Shown here in pieces: positions 38,764-47,808 of a DNA stretch of 64,000 nucleotides. The notes under the pieces were generated by a model. That model saw only the letters and a list, made by a program, of their open reading frames with translations, was not told where the DNA came from and made no database searches. The translations under genes were made by a program, and so were the position numbers. Origin of the DNA: Pseudomonas fortuita (GTDB taxonomy: Bacteria; Pseudomonadota; Gammaproteobacteria; Pseudomonadales; Pseudomonadaceae); assembly GCF_026898135.2 (NCBI RefSeq), contig NZ_CP114035.2, positions 2,087,501 to 2,151,500 of the forward strand, in the 5' to 3' direction. Position 1 is the stretch's first letter. Each line of letters begins with the position of its first letter.

Positions 38764-38866
38764 TTCGCAGCACAAGGCTGCTCCTACAGGTGAAACGCAG
38801 CCCTGGAAACCTGCGCAGTAACTGTAGGAGCAGCCTTGTGCTGCGAAAGGGCTGCCAGGCAGCCCC
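38764..38866. repeat. REP pair between pabB and the ATP-grasp gene
   Basis: TTCGCAGCACAAGGCTGCTC.. at 38764-38789 and its exact 26-bp complement at 38822-38847 are followed by GGGCTGC-CAG-GCAGCCC (38849-38865). The position upstream of pabB and just past the stop of the RimK-like gene suggests 3'-end formation of the latter's mRNA. Confidence 0.82.
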
Positions 38867-38872
38867 GGCACT

Positions 38873-39853
38873 TCAGCGGTTAGGCACGTGCCCGAACAAA
38901 CCCTGAGCTACCCGAACCCGCTGTTCGGCATCTTCGGTGATGCCGTCCTTGGCCAGTGCTTCGATGTGCGCCTCGATGGCATGTGTGCGCTGGGTCAGGC
39001 CGCAGTCGTTGGCAATCTGGATGTTCAGGCCCGGACGGGCGTTGAGCTCAAGAATCAGTGGGCCCTTCTCCTGGTCCAGTACCATGTCCACACCGATGTA
39101 ACCCAGCCCGCACAGTTCATAGCAGCCGGCGGCCAGTTTCATGAAACCGTCCCAGTTCGGCAACTGCACGCCGTCCACTGCGTTGGTGGTATCCGGGTGC
39201 TTGCTGATGATGTTGTTCAGCCAGGTACCGCGCAGGGTTACGCCGGTGGCCAGGTCAACGCCTACGCCGATGGCGCCCTGGTGCAGGTTGGCCTTGCCGC
39301 CGGACTGGCGGGTCGGCAGGCGCAGCATGGCCATTACCGGATAACCCATCAGTACAATGATGCGAATGTCCGGCACACCTTCGTAACTGATGCTTTTGAA
39401 GATCTGGTCGGGGGTAACCCGGTACTCGATCAGCGCCCGGTCGCGGTGCCCGCCCAGCGAGTACAGGCCAGTGAGGATGCTCGAAATCTGGTGCTCGATT
39501 TCCTCATGGCTGATGATCTTGCCCGATACCGTGCGGTAGCGGTCCTCGAAGCGGTCGGCGATCACCAGGATGCCATCACCGCCGGCGCCTTGCGCCGGCT
39601 TGATGACGAAATCACTGCGCCCGCCAATGATCTGGTCGAGCTTCTCGATTTCTTTCTCGGTTTCGATGATGCCGTACATTTCCGGCACATGGATGCCGGC
39701 CGCCAGGGCGCGCTCCTTGGTGATGATCTTGTCGTCGACGATCGGGTACAGGCTGCGCTTGTTGTACTTCAACACGTAGTCCGCGTTGCGCCGGTTGATA
39801 CCCATGATGCCCCGGGCCTCCAGGGCTTTCCACGTCTTGATCAGGCCAAACAT
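38873..39853 (-). CDS. RimK-like ATP-grasp ligase (alpha-L-glutamate ligase homologue)
   Basis: A 326-residue cytosolic ATP-grasp enzyme that should join an amino acid or other amine to a carboxylate through an acyl phosphate. The ATP-binding lysine lies in 'GRSDFVIKPAQGAGGDGILVI' and the metal-binding end is 'GPLILELNARPGLNIQIAN', with Glu and Asn as expected. The substrate is unknown. The ATG overlaps the stop of the 7TM gene by one base (TGATG). It is the last gene of a three-gene operon with a 7TM transglutaminase-like protein and a retropepsin-like protease. Confidence 0.88.
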   Translation of the reverse strand: MFGLIKTWKALEARGIMGINRRNADYVLKYNKRSLYPIVDDKIITKERALAAGIHVPEMYGIIETEKEIEKLDQIIGGRSDFVIKPAQGAGGDGILVIADRFEDRYRTVSGKIISHEEIEHQISSILTGLYSLGGHRDRALIEYRVTPDQIFKSISYEGVPDIRIIVLMGYPVMAMLRLPTRQSGGKANLHQGAIGVGVDLATGVTLRGTWLNNIISKHPDTTNAVDGVQLPNWDGFMKLAAGCYELCGLGYIGVDMVLDQEKGPLILELNARPGLNIQIANDCGLTQRTHAIEAHIEALAKDGITEDAEQRVRVAQGLFGHVPNR

Positions 39854-41388
39854 CAGGCGTCAGCCTTCTTCAGGAATGCCTTGAAGCGGAGAAGTTCGGT
39901 CAGGCGGTAGCCACGATAGCGGCCCATCGCCAGCATGAAGCCCACCAGGATCAGCAGCACGGCCGGGAACGTGAACACGAAGTACACCAGCTCGGGCACC
40001 ATCATCAGCAGGTGCGCCACCGAGGCGGCAAACAGGGTGCCAATGGCCACTTTCATGGCATGGCCACCGCCACGCTCTTCCCAGGTGATCGACAGGCGCT
40101 CGATGGTCATGGTCAGGATCACCATCGGGAACAGCGCCACCGACAGCCCGCGCTCAAGGCCGAGCTTGTGGCTGAACAGGCTGATGGCTGCGATCAGCAC
40201 CACGACGAAGGTCAGCACCACCGACAGGCGTGGCAGCATTTGCAGCTTGAGGTGTTCAAGGTACGAGCGTAGCGACAGGCCAAGGGCGGTAATCACCGTG
40301 AACAGCACGATGCCGAAGCCTAGCTGCGTTTCGCGGAACGCCAGGGCGATCAGCACCGGGGTGAAGGTACCCAGGGTCTGCAGGCCGACCAGGTTGCGCA
40401 GGACCAGAATCACCAGCACGCCGATCGGGATCATTACCATGATCATGAAGGTTTGCTGGGTCTGCAACGGCAGGCCGTACAGCGAATACTCGAGGAAGTC
40501 GGCGTCGGTGTTCTCGTCGGTCAGCTTGGCCAGGCGGATGGCGTTCATCTCGCTGTTGTTCATGCTGAAGGTAACGTTGGCCTTCTTGCCGCCATCGACG
40601 GTGATCAGGTTGTCGTCACCGGTCCACCACAGCAGGCGATCGTTGGGCAGGCCTTGTTCACCGGTGTCGGGGTTGAAGTACAGCCAGTCGTTACCGTTGA
40701 AGCTGCGCAGCCATAGCTCCGGGGTTTGCGGGGTGTCAGCCACCAGGCGGATGGTGTGCACCTTTTCCATCGGCACGTGGGCAATCGACAACAGCAGGTC
40801 GATGACCTGAGCTTTCTTCATCGGTGAGGTGTCGCCGGCCAGCAGCAGCTTGACGTTGTCGTCGTTGAGGTTGTTGACACGCTTGATGGTCTCGCTGACG
40901 AAGGTCTCGACGTCGGCGGAGTGCTGGCGAATCGGCGCCATCAGGGCTTCGGCGGCGATCTTCTCGGGGCCTTCGATAGCCAGGCTGTCCCGGAAGGTCG
41001 GGCCTTTGACCGTGGTCTTTTCGTTGCTGTAGCGCTTGGTAAGCACCAGGCGGTAGTAGAGGGTCTGGTTGCCGCTGGCGCGACGGGCCGACCAGGTGAC
41101 CTTGCGGTTGCCGTCGGCGCGGTTGACGCTCACCCCGTAATTGTTGGAGATGAAGCTCTCGTTGAGGCTCACGTAGTCGCGGTTCAGTGGTGGCACGAAC
41201 ATCTGCACCTTGACCGGGTCCTTGGTGCTGGCCACAAACTCGACCTTGGCGTCGATGTTCCACAGGTCGTCGGTTTCGTCTTCGGTCACCGGAATGCCGA
41301 GGAAGAAGATCTGATAGGCCGTGACCGCCACGCCCAGTAGCACCAGTACGGTGATCAGGACTTTCAGATGGAGGGTAAGAGAGCGCAT
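39853..41388 (-). CDS. Inactive transglutaminase-like domain fused to a 7TM region
   Basis: A 511-residue membrane protein. An N-terminal anchor ('VLITVLVLLGVAVTAYQIFFLG') leads to a periplasmic region of about 290 residues whose second half resembles a transglutaminase-like fold ('VIDLLLSIAHVPMEKVHTIRLV', 'GNDWLYFNPDTGEQGLPN'). Several hydrophobic helices follow from about residue 315 to 490. I find no cysteine in the whole protein, so transglutaminase chemistry is impossible. It probably binds a peptide or couples the periplasmic protease to the cytosolic ligase. Confidence 0.87.
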   Translation of the reverse strand: MRSLTLHLKVLITVLVLLGVAVTAYQIFFLGIPVTEDETDDLWNIDAKVEFVASTKDPVKVQMFVPPLNRDYVSLNESFISNNYGVSVNRADGNRKVTWSARRASGNQTLYYRLVLTKRYSNEKTTVKGPTFRDSLAIEGPEKIAAEALMAPIRQHSADVETFVSETIKRVNNLNDDNVKLLLAGDTSPMKKAQVIDLLLSIAHVPMEKVHTIRLVADTPQTPELWLRSFNGNDWLYFNPDTGEQGLPNDRLLWWTGDDNLITVDGGKKANVTFSMNNSEMNAIRLAKLTDENTDADFLEYSLYGLPLQTQQTFMIMVMIPIGVLVILVLRNLVGLQTLGTFTPVLIALAFRETQLGFGIVLFTVITALGLSLRSYLEHLKLQMLPRLSVVLTFVVVLIAAISLFSHKLGLERGLSVALFPMVILTMTIERLSITWEERGGGHAMKVAIGTLFAASVAHLLMMVPELVYFVFTFPAVLLILVGFMLAMGRYRGYRLTELLRFKAFLKKADA

Positions 41389-41393
41389 CGGGA

Positions 41394-41930
41394 TTACTCT
41401 GCTTTGGGAGCGTCGGTGGCACAGGCAGGTTTGCCGGCCGCATATTTAAGGCTTGGGTCGACCAGCGCGTCGAAGTGCTTGAGCGCCTCGGAGCCGATCA
41501 GCAGCGGGAACTGGAAGGCGCTGCGGTCGGTGAGGTTGACTTCGATGGTGCGCATGGCCTGGCCCATGCAGATTTCAAGTTCGATGACCGGGCGTGCCGT
41601 GTAGGCCTTGCCCGATTCGGCATCATAGTCGCCGGCCCGGCGCTTGATCTTGCTCACGCGTGCCAGCGGACGCTCGATCGGGTGCGAATGGGCAGCATCG
41701 ATGGCCAGGTAGAAGCGCACCCAGCTTTCGCCGTTGCGCTTGAAGCGCTTGATGTCACGGGCGCTGAGCGAGGCGGTCTTGGCACCGGTGTCGAGCTTGG
41801 CAGCCACTTCCAGGTCCAGGTCGCCCAGCCGTGCATATTCGTTCAGGCCATAGACGGTCTTGCCCGCAGCTTGGCCAAGGGCCGGCAGCAGGGTGAGGCA
41901 TAGCAGCAATAAAACGGGTGTAAGTCTCAT
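41394..41930 (-). CDS. Periplasmic retropepsin-like aspartic protease ('ATP-dependent Zn protease' family)
   Basis: A 178-residue secreted protein. Signal peptide 'LLLLCLTLLPALGQAAG' is followed by a pepsin-like half-domain with the catalytic-type motif 'AAKLDTGAKTASLSA' (DTGA) and the distal 'FPLLIGSEAL', which corresponds to the hydrophobic-Gly flap-side motif of retropepsins. The family name mentions zinc and ATP, but no zinc-binding HExxH or Walker motif is present. It begins the operon with the 7TM and ATP-grasp genes (5-bp gap). Cleavage or sensing of a periplasmic peptide is inference. Confidence 0.88.
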   Translation of the reverse strand: MRLTPVLLLLCLTLLPALGQAAGKTVYGLNEYARLGDLDLEVAAKLDTGAKTASLSARDIKRFKRNGESWVRFYLAIDAAHSHPIERPLARVSKIKRRAGDYDAESGKAYTARPVIELEICMGQAMRTIEVNLTDRSAFQFPLLIGSEALKHFDALVDPSLKYAAGKPACATDAPKAE

Positions 41931-42236: not shown

Positions 42237-42953
42237 ATGCAGGACCTTTCCACCCCCAGCCCGGTGCTGACAGACGAAACGGAAACCTTGTCTGAAAACG
42301 TCTTCAGGCGCATTCAGGCGGCCATCGTCAAGGGCGAAATCGCCCCCGGCAGCAAGATTTCCGAGCCGGAGCTGGCGCGCACCTACGGCATCAGCCGCGG
42401 GCCGCTGCGCGAGGCCATCCACCGCCTGGAGGGCCAGCGCCTGTTAGTGCGCGTGCCGCATGTTGGGGCGCGCGTGGTGTCGTTGAACCACGCCGAGCTG
42501 ATCGAGCTCTACGAAATTCGCGAGTCGCTGGAAGGCATGGCCTGCCGCCTGGCTGCCGAGCGCATGAGCCAAGGCGACATCGACGAACTGCGCCGGGTGC
42601 TCGATACCCATGAGCGCGATGCTGCGTTTCAGGCCGGCCTGGGTTACTACCAGCAGGAAGGCGACTACGACTTCCATTACCGGATCATCCAGGGCAGCGG
42701 CAACCAGACCTTGGTCAAGATGCTGTGCGGCGAACTGTACCAATTGGTGCGCATGTATCGCATCCAGTTCTCTGCCACGCCCAATCGGCCACGCCAGGCG
42801 TTTGCCGAACACCACCGCATACTCGATGCCATCGCCGACCGTGACGGCGAGCTGGCCGAACTCCTGATGCGCCGCCACATCGGCGCGTCCAAGCGCAACA
42901 TCGAGCGTCACTATCTGGACGCCCACAACAACAGCCCACGAGGTGAGAAATGA
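42237..42953 (+). CDS. prpR: GntR-family (FCD) regulator of the 2-methylcitrate cycle operon
   Basis: A 238-residue GntR regulator. The winged HTH lies at about 20-90 ('[19 protein letters not shown]', '[23 protein letters not shown]') and the FCD domain at about 95-225 ('[21 protein letters not shown]'), with histidines consistent with metal-assisted ligand binding. Its stop overlaps the prpB ATG by 4 bp (ATGA), so regulator and enzymes are one transcript. Unlike enterobacterial PrpR it is not a sigma-54 activator. Ligand 2-methylcitrate is an inference. Confidence 0.9.
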
Positions 42954-43840
42954 CTGTGAAGAGCACCCCCGGTCAGCGTTTTCGCGATGCCGTTGCCGCC
43001 GAGCATCCACTGCAGGTGGTTGGCGCCATCAACGCCAACCATGCGCTGCTGGCCAAGCGCGCCGGCTTCAAGGCCATCTACCTGTCCGGTGGCGGTGTGG
43101 CCGCAGGCTCGCTGGGCCTGCCGGACCTGGGCATCACCGGCCTGGACGACGTGCTCACCGATGTGCGCCGGATTACCGACGTGTGCGACGTGCCGTTGCT
43201 GGTGGATGTCGACACCGGCTTCGGTGCGTCAGCCTTCAACGTCGCCCGCACCGTGCGCTCGATGAGCAAGTTCGGCGCTGCCGCCATCCATATCGAGGAC
43301 CAGGTTGGCGCCAAACGCTGTGGCCACCGCCCGAACAAGGAAATCGTCAGCCAGCAGGAAATGGTCGACCGCATCAAGGCGGCCGTCGATGCCCGCAGCG
43401 ACGACAGCTTCGTGATCATGGCGCGTACCGATGCCCTGGCCGTCGAAGGCCTGAACGCAGCCCTTGATCGCGCCGAGGCGTGCATCGAGGCTGGCGCCGA
43501 CATGATCTTCCCGGAGGCCATCACCGAGTTGCAGATGTACAAGACGTTCGCTGATCGGGTGAAGGCACCGATTCTGGCCAATATCACCGAATTCGGCGCC
43601 ACGCCGCTGTATACCACCGAAGAGCTGGCCTCGGTCGACGTGTCTCTGGTGCTGTACCCGCTGTCGGCGTTCCGAGCCATGAACAAGGCGGCCGAGAACG
43701 TATACACCGCGCTGCGCCGCGACGGCACCCAGAAAAATGTGATTGACACCATGCAGACCCGCATGGAGCTCTACGATGCCATTGGTTATCACGCCTTCGA
43801 GCAGAGCCTCGACGCGCTGTTTGCCCAGAAAAAGGGCTGA
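42950..43840 (+). CDS. prpB: Methylisocitrate lyase PrpB
   Basis: A 296-residue enzyme of the isocitrate-lyase superfamily that splits 2-methylisocitrate into pyruvate and succinate. '[24 protein letters not shown]' and 'LVDVDTGFG' form the metal site. The catalytic loop motif is KRCGH with Cys as general acid. The translation start overlaps prpR. It is the last chemical step of the cycle although first in gene order. Confidence 0.97.
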
Positions 43841-43898
43841 GCAACACCCCGAATTAGCCAGAGCAAATCCATAACAAGTTCAAGAAAGGAGAAACACC

Positions 43899-45026
43899 AT
43901 GGCCGAAGCGAAAGTACTCAGTGGCGCAGGTCTGCGCGGTCAGGTGGCCGGCCAGACCGCACTGTCGACCGTGGGCCAGGCCGGTGCCGGGCTGACCTAT
44001 CGCGGTTACGACGTACGTGACCTGGCAGCAGGTGCCGAATTCGAAGAAGTCGCTTACCTGCTGCTGTACGGCGAACTACCCTCCCAGGCCGAGCTGGATG
44101 ACTACAAGCGCAAGCTCAAGGGCCTGCGTGACCTGCCGCAAGCCTTGAAAGAAGTACTGGAACGTATCCCGCGTGACGCTCACCCGATGGACGTGATGCG
44201 CACCGGTTGCTCGGTGTTGGGCACCCTGGAGCCAGAGCTGACCTTTGAAGCCCAGCGTGACAAGACCGACCGCTTGCTGGCGCTGTTCCCGGCAGTGATG
44301 TGCTACTGGTACCGCTTTACCCACCATGGCGTACGCATCGACTGCACCAGTGACGAAGACACGCTCGGCGGCCACTTCCTGCATCTGCTGCACGGCAAGA
44401 AGCCGAGCGAGCTGCACGTCAAGGTCATGAATGTGTCGCTGATCCTCTACGCCGAGCACGAGTTCAACGCCTCGACCTTCACCGCCCGCGTCTGCGCGTC
44501 GACCTTGTCCGACCTGTACTCCTGCGTCACGGCCGCCATCGGTTCGCTGCGCGGCCCGCTGCACGGGGGGGCCAACGAGGCAGCGATGGAGTTGATCGAG
44601 CGTTTCCAGAGCCCGCAGGAAGCCACTGCCGAGCTGCTGCGCATGCTGGAGCGCAAGGACAAGATCATGGGCTTTGGCCACGCCATCTACAAAGAGTCCG
44701 ACCCGCGCAACGAGGTGATCAAGGGCTGGTCGAAGCAGTTGGCTGACGAAGTGGGCGACACCGTGCTGTACCCGGTTTCCGAAGCCATCGACAAGACCAT
44801 GTGGGAGCAGAAGCGCCTGTTCCCCAACGCTGACTTCTACCATGCGTCGGCGTATCACTTCATGGGCATTCCGACCAAGCTGTTCACCCCGATCTTCGTC
44901 TGTTCGCGCCTGACCGGCTGGGCGGCGCACGTCTTCGAGCAGCGCGCCAACAACCGCATCATCCGCCCGAGCGCCGAGTATGTCGGCGTCGAGCAGCGTC
45001 AGTTCGTGCCCATCGAGCAGCGCTGA
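43899..45026 (+). CDS. prpC: 2-methylcitrate synthase PrpC
   Basis: A 375-residue citrate-synthase-family enzyme condensing propionyl-CoA and oxaloacetate. Typical features are 'GLTYRGYDVRDLAAGAEFEEVAYLLLYGELP' split across the N-domain, the active-site 'PLHGGANEAAMELI' and 'IMGFGHAIYKESDPRNEVIK' with catalytic His, and the closing 'SAEYVGVEQRQFVPIEQR'. The shorter length compared with GltA (about 430) is typical of PrpC. AGGAG precedes the ATG. Confidence 0.97.
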   Translation: MAEAKVLSGAGLRGQVAGQTALSTVGQAGAGLTYRGYDVRDLAAGAEFEEVAYLLLYGELPSQAELDDYKRKLKGLRDLPQALKEVLERIPRDAHPMDVMRTGCSVLGTLEPELTFEAQRDKTDRLLALFPAVMCYWYRFTHHGVRIDCTSDEDTLGGHFLHLLHGKKPSELHVKVMNVSLILYAEHEFNASTFTARVCASTLSDLYSCVTAAIGSLRGPLHGGANEAAMELIERFQSPQEATAELLRMLERKDKIMGFGHAIYKESDPRNEVIKGWSKQLADEVGDTVLYPVSEAIDKTMWEQKRLFPNADFYHASAYHFMGIPTKLFTPIFVCSRLTGWAAHVFEQRANNRIIRPSAEYVGVEQRQFVPIEQR

Positions 45027-45048
45027 CAGACCGAACCTGTGGGGTGGC

Positions 45049-45156
45049 CTGGTCCGGCCTCATCGCCGGCAAGCCAGCGCCTACAGGTGTTGCACCGCCC
45101 TTGAGGCTTGCGCTGCACCTGTAGCAGCTGGCTTGCCGGCGATGAAGCCGGACCAG
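45049..45156. repeat. REP pair between prpC and acnD
   Basis: CTGGTCCGGCCTCATCGCCG.. at 45049-45089 is inverted at 45116-45156 with a few mismatches. This is a second REP subtype (CGCCGGCAAGCCAG core), inside an operon, and may tune expression between prpC and acnD. Confidence 0.8.
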
Positions 45157-45219
45157 CCAACACAGGACAGCAATTAGAAAGCTATCCACGACCGTACCGT
45201 GACCGAGCCTGATAACGAT

Positions 45220-47808
45220 ATGAACACAGCATTTCGCAAGCACCTGCCAGGCACCGACCTGGACTACTTCGATGCCCGTGCGGCGGTCGAGGCGATCAAG
45301 CCCGGCGCCTACGACGGCCTGCCTTACACGTCCCGCGTGCTCGCCGAGAACCTGGTGCGCCGCTGCGACCCGGCAACCCTCGACGCCTCGCTGGGCCAGC
45401 TGATCGAGCGCCAGCGCGACCTCGACTTCCCATGGTTCCCGGCCCGCGTGGTGTGCCACGACATCCTCGGCCAGACCGCGCTGGTCGACCTCGCCGGCCT
45501 GCGCGATGCCATTGCCGACAAGGGTGGCGACCCAGCTGCCGTCAACCCGGTGGTACCGGTGCAACTGATCGTCGACCACTCGCTGGCAGTGGAGTGCGGT
45601 GGCTTCGACCCGCAGGCCTTCGAGAAGAACCGCGCCATTGAAGACCGCCGCAACGAAGACCGCTTTCACTTCATCAACTGGACCAAGAAGGCGTTCAAGA
45701 ATGTCGACGTGATCCAGCCGGGCAACGGCATCATGCACCAGATCAACCTGGAGAAGATGTCGCCTGTCATCCACAACGACCGCGGCGTGGCCTACCCGGA
45801 CACCTGCGTCGGCACCGATAGCCACACCCCGCATGTTGATGCCTTGGGCGTGATCGCCATCGGCGTGGGCGGCCTGGAAGCAGAGAACGTGATGCTCGGC
45901 CGCGCCTCCTGGATGCGCCTGCCGGAAATCGTCGGCGTCGAGCTGACCGGCAAGCTGGCACCGAACATCACCGCCACCGACCTGGTGCTGGCCTTGACCG
46001 AATTCCTGCGCAAACAGAAGGTAGTTGGCGCCTATCTGGAGTTTCACGGTGAAGGTGCCCGGGCCCTGACCCTGGGCGACCGCGCCACCATTTCCAACAT
46101 GGCGCCGGAATACGGCGCCACCGCAGCGATGTTCGCCATCGACCAGCAGACCATCGACTACCTGCGCCTGACCGGCCGTGAAGAGCAGCAGGTCAAGCTG
46201 GTGGAAACCTATGCCAAGGCCACCGGCCTGTGGGCTGACAGCCTGGGCGGCGCCGTCTACGAGCGCACCCTGCGCTTCGACCTGGCGAGCGTGGTGCGCA
46301 ATATGGCCGGCCCGTCCAACCCGCACGCTCGCGTGGCTACCAGCGACCTGGCAGCCAAAGGCATTGCCGGTAGCTGGGAAGAGGTGCCTGGGCAGATGCC
46401 GGACGGCGCGGTAATCATTGCCGCGATCACCAGCTGCACCAACACCAGCAACCCGCGTAACGTGATCGCCGCTGGCCTGATTGCACGCAATGCCAACAGG
46501 CTGGGGCTGGCCCGCAAACCGTGGGTCAAGTCGTCGCTGGCGCCAGGTTCCAAGGCTGTGCAGCTGTACCTGGAAGAAGCGGGGCTGGAGAAGGAGCTGG
46601 AGCAACTCGGTTTCGGCATCGTCGCCTTCGCCTGCACCACCTGCAACGGGATGTCCGGTGCCCTGGACCCGGCGATCCAGCAAGAAATCATCGACCGAGA
46701 CCTGTACGCCACCGCCGTGCTGTCGGGCAACCGCAACTTCGACGGGCGTATCCACCCGTATGCCAAGCAGGCCTTCCTGGCCTCGCCGCCGCTGGTGGTG
46801 GCCTATGCCATTGCCGGTACCATCCGCTTCGACATCGAAAAGGATGTGCTGGGCGTGGTCGATGGCAAGGAAATCCGCCTCAAGGACATCTGGCCGAGTG
46901 ATGAAGAGATTGATGCCGTGGTGCGTGCTGCGGTGAAGCCAGAACAGTTCCGCAAGGTGTATATCCCGATGTTCGCCATCGAGGAAGACCGTGGGCCGAA
47001 GGTGGCGCCGCTGTATGACTGGCGCCCGATGAGCACCTACATCCGTCGCCCCCCGTACTGGGAAGGCGCATTGGCGGGTGAGCGTACCCTGCGCGGCATG
47101 CGCCCGCTGGCGGTACTGCCGGACAACATCACCACCGACCACCTGTCGCCGTCCAACGCCATCATGCTCGACAGCGCCGCCGGTGAGTACCTGGCGAAGA
47201 TGGGCTTGCCGGAAGAGGACTTCAACTCCTACGCCACTCACCGTGGCGACCACCTGACCGCTCAGCGTGCCACCTTCGCCAACCCCAAGCTGTTCAATGA
47301 AATGGTGCGCAAGGAAGACGGTAGCGTGAAGCAGGGCTCGCTGGCGCGTATCGAGCCGGAAGGCAAGGTCACCCGCATGTGGGAGGCAATCGAGACCTAC
47401 ATGCAGCGTAAACAGCCGCTGATCATTGTTGCCGGCGCCGACTACGGCCAGGGTTCGTCCCGTGACTGGGCGGCCAAGGGCGTGCGCCTGGCGGGTGTCG
47501 AGGCCATTGTCGCCGAGGGCTTCGAACGCATACACCGCACCAACCTGGTGGGCATGGGTGTATTGCCGCTGGAGTTCAAGCCAGGCACCGACCGCAAGAC
47601 TCTGGGCCTGGACGGCAGCGAGACCTATGACGTGATTGGCGCGCGTACGCCACGGGCGACCCTGACGTTGGTGGTTACCCGCGCCACTGGCGAGCGCCTG
47701 GAAGTGCCGGTGACCTGCCGCCTGGACACTGCAGAGGAGGTGTCGATCTACGAAGCGGGCGGCGTGCTGCAGCGCTTTGCCCAGGACTTCCTCGAAGCGA
47801 CCGCCTGA
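45220..47808 (+). CDS. acnD: Fe/S-dependent 2-methylcitrate dehydratase AcnD
   Basis: An 862-residue aconitase-A-type enzyme that dehydrates 2-methylcitrate to a 2-methylaconitate isomer. The [4Fe-4S] ligands are in 'ITSCTNTSNPRN' and 'FACTTCNGMSG'. 'GTDSHTPHVDALGVIAIGVGG' and 'ADYGQGSSRDWAAKGVRL' are aconitase signatures. Start ATG at 45220 ('MNTAFRKHLPGTDLDYFDAR') agrees with AcnD. A GTG seven codons upstream is an alternative. It needs PrpF to isomerise its product for AcnB. Confidence 0.95.
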   Translation: MNTAFRKHLPGTDLDYFDARAAVEAIKPGAYDGLPYTSRVLAENLVRRCDPATLDASLGQLIERQRDLDFPWFPARVVCHDILGQTALVDLAGLRDAIADKGGDPAAVNPVVPVQLIVDHSLAVECGGFDPQAFEKNRAIEDRRNEDRFHFINWTKKAFKNVDVIQPGNGIMHQINLEKMSPVIHNDRGVAYPDTCVGTDSHTPHVDALGVIAIGVGGLEAENVMLGRASWMRLPEIVGVELTGKLAPNITATDLVLALTEFLRKQKVVGAYLEFHGEGARALTLGDRATISNMAPEYGATAAMFAIDQQTIDYLRLTGREEQQVKLVETYAKATGLWADSLGGAVYERTLRFDLASVVRNMAGPSNPHARVATSDLAAKGIAGSWEEVPGQMPDGAVIIAAITSCTNTSNPRNVIAAGLIARNANRLGLARKPWVKSSLAPGSKAVQLYLEEAGLEKELEQLGFGIVAFACTTCNGMSGALDPAIQQEIIDRDLYATAVLSGNRNFDGRIHPYAKQAFLASPPLVVAYAIAGTIRFDIEKDVLGVVDGKEIRLKDIWPSDEEIDAVVRAAVKPEQFRKVYIPMFAIEEDRGPKVAPLYDWRPMSTYIRRPPYWEGALAGERTLRGMRPLAVLPDNITTDHLSPSNAIMLDSAAGEYLAKMGLPEEDFNSYATHRGDHLTAQRATFANPKLFNEMVRKEDGSVKQGSLARIEPEGKVTRMWEAIETYMQRKQPLIIVAGADYGQGSSRDWAAKGVRLAGVEAIVAEGFERIHRTNLVGMGVLPLEFKPGTDRKTLGLDGSETYDVIGARTPRATLTLVVTRATGERLEVPVTCRLDTAEEVSIYEAGGVLQRFAQDFLEATA

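What the first reader, a model, noticed from the sequence alone, without database searches (positions are those of the whole stretch)
38873..41930. Envelope-spanning three-gene system: retropepsin-like protease, cysteine-free 7TM transglutaminase relative, RimK-like ligase
Three tightly coupled genes (5-bp gap, then a TGATG overlap) place a secreted DTGA aspartic protease in the periplasm, a membrane protein with a dead transglutaminase-like periplasmic domain in between, and an ATP-grasp peptide ligase in the cytosol. The layout suggests a peptide tag made inside and trimmed or sensed outside, with the 7TM protein as conduit. As far as I recall, comparative genomics predicted such a neighbourhood but the substrate is not established.
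Basis: partly seen in the sequence, partly recalled or inferred. Interest (0 to 1): 0.8.

Follow-up and report, generated by a model that had tools for sequence, protein, structure and literature searches.

The report
Known rlo envelope-stress operon, Pseudomonas copy
These three neighbouring bacterial genes are a copy of the recently described rlo operon, which probably makes an acidic peptide product at the inner membrane and trims it on the outer side, and comparison with distant relatives suggests how its unknown job could be tested.

Summary
The genes are rloA, rloB and rloC, named in P. aeruginosa in mBio 2025 (PMC12239564). RloA and RloB pass rlo-named NCBIfam models and RloC passes TIGR02291, so the finding is already known. 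In that paper, loss of the secreted proteases is suppressed by deleting rloB or rloC, and RloA cuts chains of 8 or more glutamates in vitro. The natural substrate is unknown.

New here: in 276 gammaproteobacterial genomes, 46 have canonical rloB and the same 46 have rloC next to it; RloA lies just upstream in 43. A sister branch keeps Cys and His in the RloB transglutaminase domain. None of its 54 loci (47 distinct) shows RloA in the stretch examined. Of 34 with room, 33 carry a TPR protein and 29 a barrel-like protein (one modelled, 16 strands). On the tree this is one split, so it only suggests that a periplasmic amide-cutting step can be served either way. At least 21 of 73 canonical RloAs look like lipoproteins.

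Best mechanism: RloC ligates glutamate-like residues, RloB handles the product at the membrane, RloA trims it. RloB's conduit role is untested.

The parts
41394..41930 (-). rloA: secreted retropepsin-like aspartic peptidase (178 aa)
   Evidence: NF052262 344 bits over cut-off 280; PF05618 157.1 bits; solved relative 9g58_A E 8.1e-88
41868..41930 (-). RloA N-terminal signal-peptide-like segment (residues 1-21)
   Evidence: hydrophobic stretch ending GQA-A in the translation; boundary is my reading, no signal-peptide program was run
41781..41792 (-). RloA catalytic motif DTGA (residues 47-50)
   Evidence: all 8 polyglutamate-contact residues named for P. aeruginosa RloA are present at the matching positions
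39853..41388 (-). rloB: inner-membrane protein with dead transglutaminase-like periplasmic domain and 7TM domain (511 aa, no Cys)
   Evidence: NF052267 1072.5 bits over cut-off 900; PF14400, PF14402; Cys count 0
40543..41274 (-). RloB periplasmic domain (residues 39-282), transglutaminase/cysteine-protease fold without catalytic residues
39922..40467 (-). RloB membrane helices (residues 308-489)
   Evidence: hydropathy, helices in the model, PF14402 residues 260-505
38873..39853 (-). rloC: cytosolic ATP-grasp amide ligase (326 aa)
   Evidence: TIGR02291 565.5 bits over cut-off 314.2; PF14397 residues 21-294; K42, K85, R178, N189, D256, E269, N271 invariant in 48 active-branch rows (duplicates included) and 78 other RloCs
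39851..39855 (-). TGATG stop/start overlap of rloB and rloC
41389..41393 (-). 5-bp gap between rloA and rloB

Best explanation
This is the rlo operon of a Pseudomonas of the P. putida kind. Shown: the identity, the operon layout, the intact ATP-grasp residues of RloC, the intact active site and polyglutamate-contact residues of RloA, and the absence of cysteine from RloB. Taken from published P. aeruginosa work: RloA proteases cut chains of 8 or more glutamates in vitro, and losing all three secreted RloA proteases harms growth in low salt unless rloB or rloC is also removed. Inferred: RloC joins glutamate or similar residues into an acidic peptide or onto an acceptor at the inner face of the membrane. 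RloB brings the ligase to the membrane and moves or presents the product to the periplasm. RloA trims it there, and untrimmed product disturbs the cell envelope. The least certain step is what RloB does with the product.
For: RloA and RloB pass rlo-named models, RloC passes TIGR02291. rloB and rloC are adjacent in 46 of 46, with rloA upstream in 43 of 46, and one natural RloB-RloC fusion of 838 aa exists (L033). With a profile of 21 RloCs the nearest solved relatives are glutamate or cyanophycin ligases: S6-glutamate ligase 5zct E 1.8e-8, cyanophycin synthase 1e-5, tubulin polyglutamylase TTLL7 1.1e-4. RloA keeps D47 and all 8 contact residues. Suppression genetics and polyglutamate cleavage: PMC12239564 sections 8, 11, 12. 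The related cytosolic pair RimK/RimB makes and cuts poly-alpha-glutamate (PMC11957791, passages including part of the abstract).
Confidence: 0.6

Rival explanations
1. RloB is a sensor, not a conduit: its dead periplasmic domain binds acidic peptides or a cell-wall ligand and controls RloC in the cytosol, while RloA sets the ligand level outside.
For: Dead enzyme domains often bind former substrates (general knowledge). The membrane core carries charged residues R331, E430, R431, E498, R501 conserved in both branches. A RloB-RloC fusion exists. It equally explains why removing rloB or rloC suppresses rloA loss.
Against: Between residues 113 and 320 no column keeps the same residue at 88% or more in both branches; one (254) is fixed to different residues, which is weak support for a shared ligand site. 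The sister branch keeps the Cys-His pair and travels with a TPR protein and barrel, more like processing or export.
Confidence: 0.2
2. The operon modifies a particular envelope protein or peptidoglycan-linked factor with an acidic tail, and RloA removes the tail (a reversible modification as in RimK/RimB, but in the envelope).
For: RimK/RimB precedent; peptidoglycan-type phenotypes and suppression; RloA cuts polyglutamate both within proteins and at their C-termini.
Against: RloC is predicted to be cytosolic while the trimming enzyme is outside, so the target would have to cross the membrane after modification. The authors' search for encoded acidic stretches gave one candidate, which was not cut, although that search could not see modified proteins.
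Confidence: 0.15
3. RloC is a second ribosomal S6 or cytosolic ligase and its link to the protease is incidental.
For: RloC is a distant RimK relative.
Against: A separate RimB with a RimK carrying both RimK domains sits elsewhere in the same genome. RloC lacks the RimK N-terminal domain. Adjacency with canonical rloB is 46 of 46. rloC deletion rescues protease mutants.
Confidence: 0.03

Closest known systems
rloABC operon of Pseudomonas aeruginosa (PMC12239564; PA1768-PA1767-PA1766 in PMC7314104)
   Same: Same gene order, same families over curated cut-offs, same catalytic motif and polyglutamate-contact residues
   Different: The window's genome has two secreted RloA proteins (RloA and an RloA2 near CreC) and one RimB; P. 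aeruginosa has three secreted ones plus RimB
RimB-RimK (ribosomal S6 polyglutamylation and poly-alpha-glutamate synthesis)
   Same: Pairing of an ATP-grasp ligase with a retropepsin-like protease
   Different: Both proteins are cytosolic, there is no RloB, and RimK has an N-terminal domain that RloC lacks
Transglutaminase-7TM (Cys-His kept) / ATP-grasp / TPR / barrel operon (sister branch found here, e.g. L121, L128, L131; no name found in the searches listed)
   Same: RloB-like membrane protein followed by an RloC-like ligase with the same invariant ATP-grasp residues
   Different: Cys-His pair intact, no RloA seen in the locus, TPR protein and barrel added
Poly-gamma-glutamate capsule machinery of Gram-positive bacteria (recalled, not compared here)
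   Same: Works like: ligase plus membrane partner plus a hydrolase acting outside
   Different: Different protein families as I recall; no membership is claimed

Membership tests
rlo operon | RloA passes the RloA1 model NF052262 | tested here: met
   344 bits, cut-off 280
rlo operon | RloB passes NF052267 | tested here: met
   1072.5 bits, cut-off 900
rlo operon | RloC passes TIGR02291 | tested here: met
   565.5 bits, cut-off 314.2; TIGR02291 is not named after rlo
rlo operon | gene order A-B-C on one strand, tightly spaced | tested here: met
rlo operon | protease loss is suppressed by rloB or rloC loss | not testable with these tools
   known to me for P. aeruginosa only
retropepsin-like secreted peptidase (RloA) | DTGA motif and N-terminal export segment | tested here: met
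   (export segment by hydropathy only); solved relatives 9g58, 9g59
active transglutaminase or cysteine protease (RloB) | catalytic Cys-His-Asp | tested here: not met
   no cysteine in the protein; aligned residues P, E, N
transglutaminase-like fold (RloB periplasmic domain) | structural match to a transglutaminase-like enzyme over the domain | tested here: met
RimK (S6-glutamate ligase) | RimK N-terminal domain PF18030 and RimK-family cut-off | tested here: not met
   PF18030 not reported at E 0.001; TIGR00768 49.9 bits against cut-off 143.4
ATP-grasp amide ligase | nucleotide- and metal-binding residues conserved | tested here: met
   K42, K85, R178, N189, D256, E269, N271 invariant and shared with the RimK of the same genome; their roles are recalled from the ATP-grasp family
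Rnf-Nqr type membrane subunit (RloB 7TM) | shared fold and sequence profile | tested here: inconclusive

The most novel reading that the evidence does not exclude
RloB-RloC is a conserved core that makes an acidic, probably glutamate-rich, product and delivers it to the periplasm, normally paired with a periplasmic enzyme that cuts amide bonds. In the sister branch that enzyme is the intact transglutaminase-like domain of RloB itself, and the product is passed on by a TPR protein and a 16-strand barrel, perhaps to the cell surface. In the Pseudomonas branch the domain is dead, the exporter parts are absent, and a separate retropepsin, free or lipid-anchored, does the cutting. The active four-gene operon would then be an undescribed poly-amino-acid export or surface-modification pathway, and rlo a variant of it that destroys or trims its product.
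Probability: 0.3. Interest if true: 0.75.

Novelty: already known. Interest (0 to 1): 0.47.

Why it matters
The rlo operon affects low-salt survival, cell shape, biofilm and antibiotic tolerance in P. aeruginosa, but what RloC makes and what RloA cuts in the cell are not established. The comparison gives a direct way in. A sister operon that keeps the catalytic pair and adds its own outer-membrane barrel may make the same kind of product and leave it outside the cell, where it could be collected. The lipoprotein forms of RloA suggest that, in part of the family, trimming happens at a membrane.

Tried and rejected
Rejected: chance clustering (46 of 46 rloB-rloC); RloC as the S6 ligase; RloB as an active cysteine enzyme.

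Counts. Class sample: 59 of 276 genomes match PF14402, 58 over cut-off. 46 are 'canonical' (E under 1e-90). Of the others, 6 are active-branch with an RloC-like gene, G213 is split by contig ends, 5 have no RloC in the locus, and G067 is below cut-off with nothing found. The strict script gives RloA upstream in 42 of 46; the 43rd (L077) fails only because the longest-ORF start of RloB overlaps RloA. The phylum sample had 71 hits in 397 genomes. Outside the class sample I fetched 36 of these loci (16, 20): 31 canonical, 3 active, 2 with RloB lacking the transglutaminase domain. RloA is upstream in 30 of the 31 (28 by the strict script; L110 and L118 fail as L077 does; L103 has none).

Rows dropped before the tree: 7 duplicate records, recognised by equal contig lengths (L030, L031, L032, L034, L112, L113, L114), and 5 broken or cut-off ones (L041, L043, L126, L155, L157), then rows at 80% identity or more (128 to 104).

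Literature: 9 searches listed no paper that I recognised as describing the active four-gene operon or lipoprotein RloA; one search stripped underscores from model names, so it is weak. Iyer et al. 2009 is not held and may describe part of this.

Full report
What is there. The 5-bp gap and the TGATG overlap are real. RloA has a hydrophobic start and DTGA at residues 47-50. RloB has no cysteine. RloC keeps the ATP-grasp residues. The neighbours look unrelated: pabB, cysH and cysB on one side, and a GntR-family regulator (PF00392 and PF07729) followed by methylcitrate-cycle genes on the other.

Identity. NCBIfam names the first two outright: RloA 344 bits (cut-off 280) and RloB 1072.5 (cut-off 900). 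RloC passes TIGR02291 at 565.5 (cut-off 314.2). Several RloB homologues of Pseudomonas, P. putida among them, carry the name 'osmotic stress tolerance membrane protein RloB' in the protein search. The operon was described in Pseudomonas aeruginosa in 2025 (PMC12239564; I read the abstract, sections 5, 8, 11 and 12, and passages). Earlier it appeared as PA1768-PA1767-PA1766 in a table of suppressor insertions (PMC7314104, one passage). [quoted passage not shown] So the finding is already known.

What the paper settles and leaves open. Three secreted proteases act redundantly; losing all three harms low-salt growth, biofilm, shape and antibiotic tolerance. Deleting rloB or rloC fully restores low-salt growth and partly restores the rest. 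RloA cuts reporters with 8 or 10 glutamates but not 6 or fewer. All eight residues named there as contacting polyglutamate are conserved in the window's RloA. The natural substrate and how RloA, RloB and RloC act together are left open.

Own genome. It holds three PF05618 genes: the window's RloA, an RloA2 near creC (295.4 bits, cut-off 250), and a RimB (287.5 bits, cut-off 200) next to a gene with both RimK domains (PF08443 234.7 and PF18030 156.2 bits). Only one PF14397 gene passes the family cut-off, the window's RloC. RloC is therefore not the genome's S6 ligase by default.

Co-conservation. In a 276-genome sample of the class, PF14402 is over cut-off in 58 genomes. 46 of these are strong (E under 1e-90, here called canonical), and RloC is over cut-off in 46. 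They are the same 46, always adjacent on one strand with rloC downstream. RloA is directly upstream in 43 of 46; the other three are G244, G149 and G103. Of the remaining 12 genomes over cut-off, 6 belong to the sister branch below, one (G213) is split by contig ends, and 5 have a divergent dead RloB without RloC in the locus. Of 31 further canonical loci fetched from a phylum sample, 30 have RloA upstream.

A sister architecture. A second branch of RloB (21-25% identity to the window protein in the 31 rows aligned) matches the transglutaminase core PF01841 in 9 of 9 members scanned. Across the loci examined, 54 have Cys and His at the catalytic columns (51 with Asp, 3 with Cys in its place); 7 of these are duplicate records, leaving 47. 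None of the 54 has an RloA match in the fetched stretch; 41 of the 47 have at least 1.5 kb upstream of RloB to look at. The record titles name gammaproteobacterial MAGs, Nitrospirota, Desulfobulbaceae, Mariprofundaceae, Campylobacterales, Spirochaetes, Flavobacteriales and others. In the 34 loci with at least 4.2 kb downstream, 33 carry a TPR protein and 29 a barrel-like protein of about 400 aa; among 85 loci outside this branch none matches the barrel profile. One barrel (L121) was modelled: confident (pLDDT 89.3, pTM 0.82) with 16 strands, matching porins and the alginate exporter AlgE. RloC of this branch shares the invariant ATP-grasp residues with the canonical RloC (48 rows, duplicates included, and 78 rows). 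That the Cys-His domain is catalytically active is inference from the residues and the weak profile match to a putative cysteine protease, 3isr, E 0.015.

How far this goes. On a tree of the 7TM part (104 rows) the rows with the pair form one side of one branch (SH-aLRT 99). The triad state changes once, so the association with RloA is a single contrast. It is a hypothesis, not a statistic: both branches need a periplasmic amide-cutting activity, in cis in one and in trans in the other. Whole-genome searches fit mostly but not fully. Of 18 active-branch genomes searched (for 18 of the 47 loci), 13 have no PF05618 match. Of the 5 with matches, four have a copy without a hydrophobic N-terminus, three of these beside a RimK-like ATP-grasp gene; one of the four (G265) also has a secreted-looking copy beside a second, dead RloB; the match in G653 lies in a broken frame. 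Of 6 genomes with a dead or missing transglutaminase domain and no adjacent RloA, two have a secreted-looking RloA elsewhere and four do not.

Other variants. A few loci have a divergent dead RloB and an RloA but no RloC: L038, L039 and L043 (cut off by a contig end) with the two genes side by side, L040 with them about 5 kb apart, and L036 with a true RimK on the other side. Two loci from elsewhere in the phylum have a 7TM protein without any transglutaminase domain next to RloC (L115, L116). The membrane domain is thus the constant part, usually with a ligase. At least 21 of 73 canonical RloAs have a lipobox by my pattern; in the 19 where it could be measured, 84-148 residues lie between the lipid cysteine and the catalytic Asp. 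The 2025 paper's text contains neither 'lipoprotein' nor 'lipobox'. The window's RloA was not among the 21.

Mechanism. I favour: RloC forms peptide bonds with glutamate-like residues, since its profile's nearest solved relatives are S6-glutamate ligase, cyanophycin synthase and tubulin polyglutamylase (the window sequence alone finds none). RloB, tied to it by overlap and once by fusion, takes the product to the periplasm, and RloA trims it. The first part is family inference, the middle is topology, the last is published biochemistry plus genetics from a relative. Overall confidence 0.6; identity alone is close to certain.

Rechecking the calls changed some statements (PF01841 members, own RimK, the list of RloC-less loci, upstream room, G653); some searches were added.

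Noticed in passing
L121:7001-12628, and the like in L123, L128, L131, L132: Four-gene operon for which I found no description: transglutaminase-7TM protein with Cys-His kept, ATP-grasp ligase, TPR protein, predicted outer-membrane barrel, in records of several phyla.
   Followed up: partly
L085, L086, L087, L092, L093, L120 and 15 more loci: RloA predicted as a lipoprotein; in 19 of the 21 the lipid cysteine is 84-148 residues before the catalytic Asp.
   Followed up: partly
L033:3476-5992: Natural fusion of RloB and RloC in one 838-aa frame.
   Followed up: partly
L115:4080-5237, L116:3900-5021: 7TM protein without any transglutaminase domain next to RloC; L115 also has RloA and a true RimK in the same stretch.
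   Followed up: partly
L021:1-2452, L022:207-2668: In two canonical loci without RloA, FAD_binding_3 genes stand upstream of rloB instead.
   Followed up: no
window 38764-38847: A pair of 26-base arms in inverted orientation (TTCGCAGCACAAGGCTGCTCCTACAG and its complement, read off) just downstream of rloC, like Pseudomonas REP elements (label recalled).
   Followed up: no
window 42237-47808: A GntR-family regulator followed by methylcitrate-cycle genes (methylisocitrate lyase, 2-methylcitrate synthase, AcnD), divergent from rloA.
   Followed up: partly
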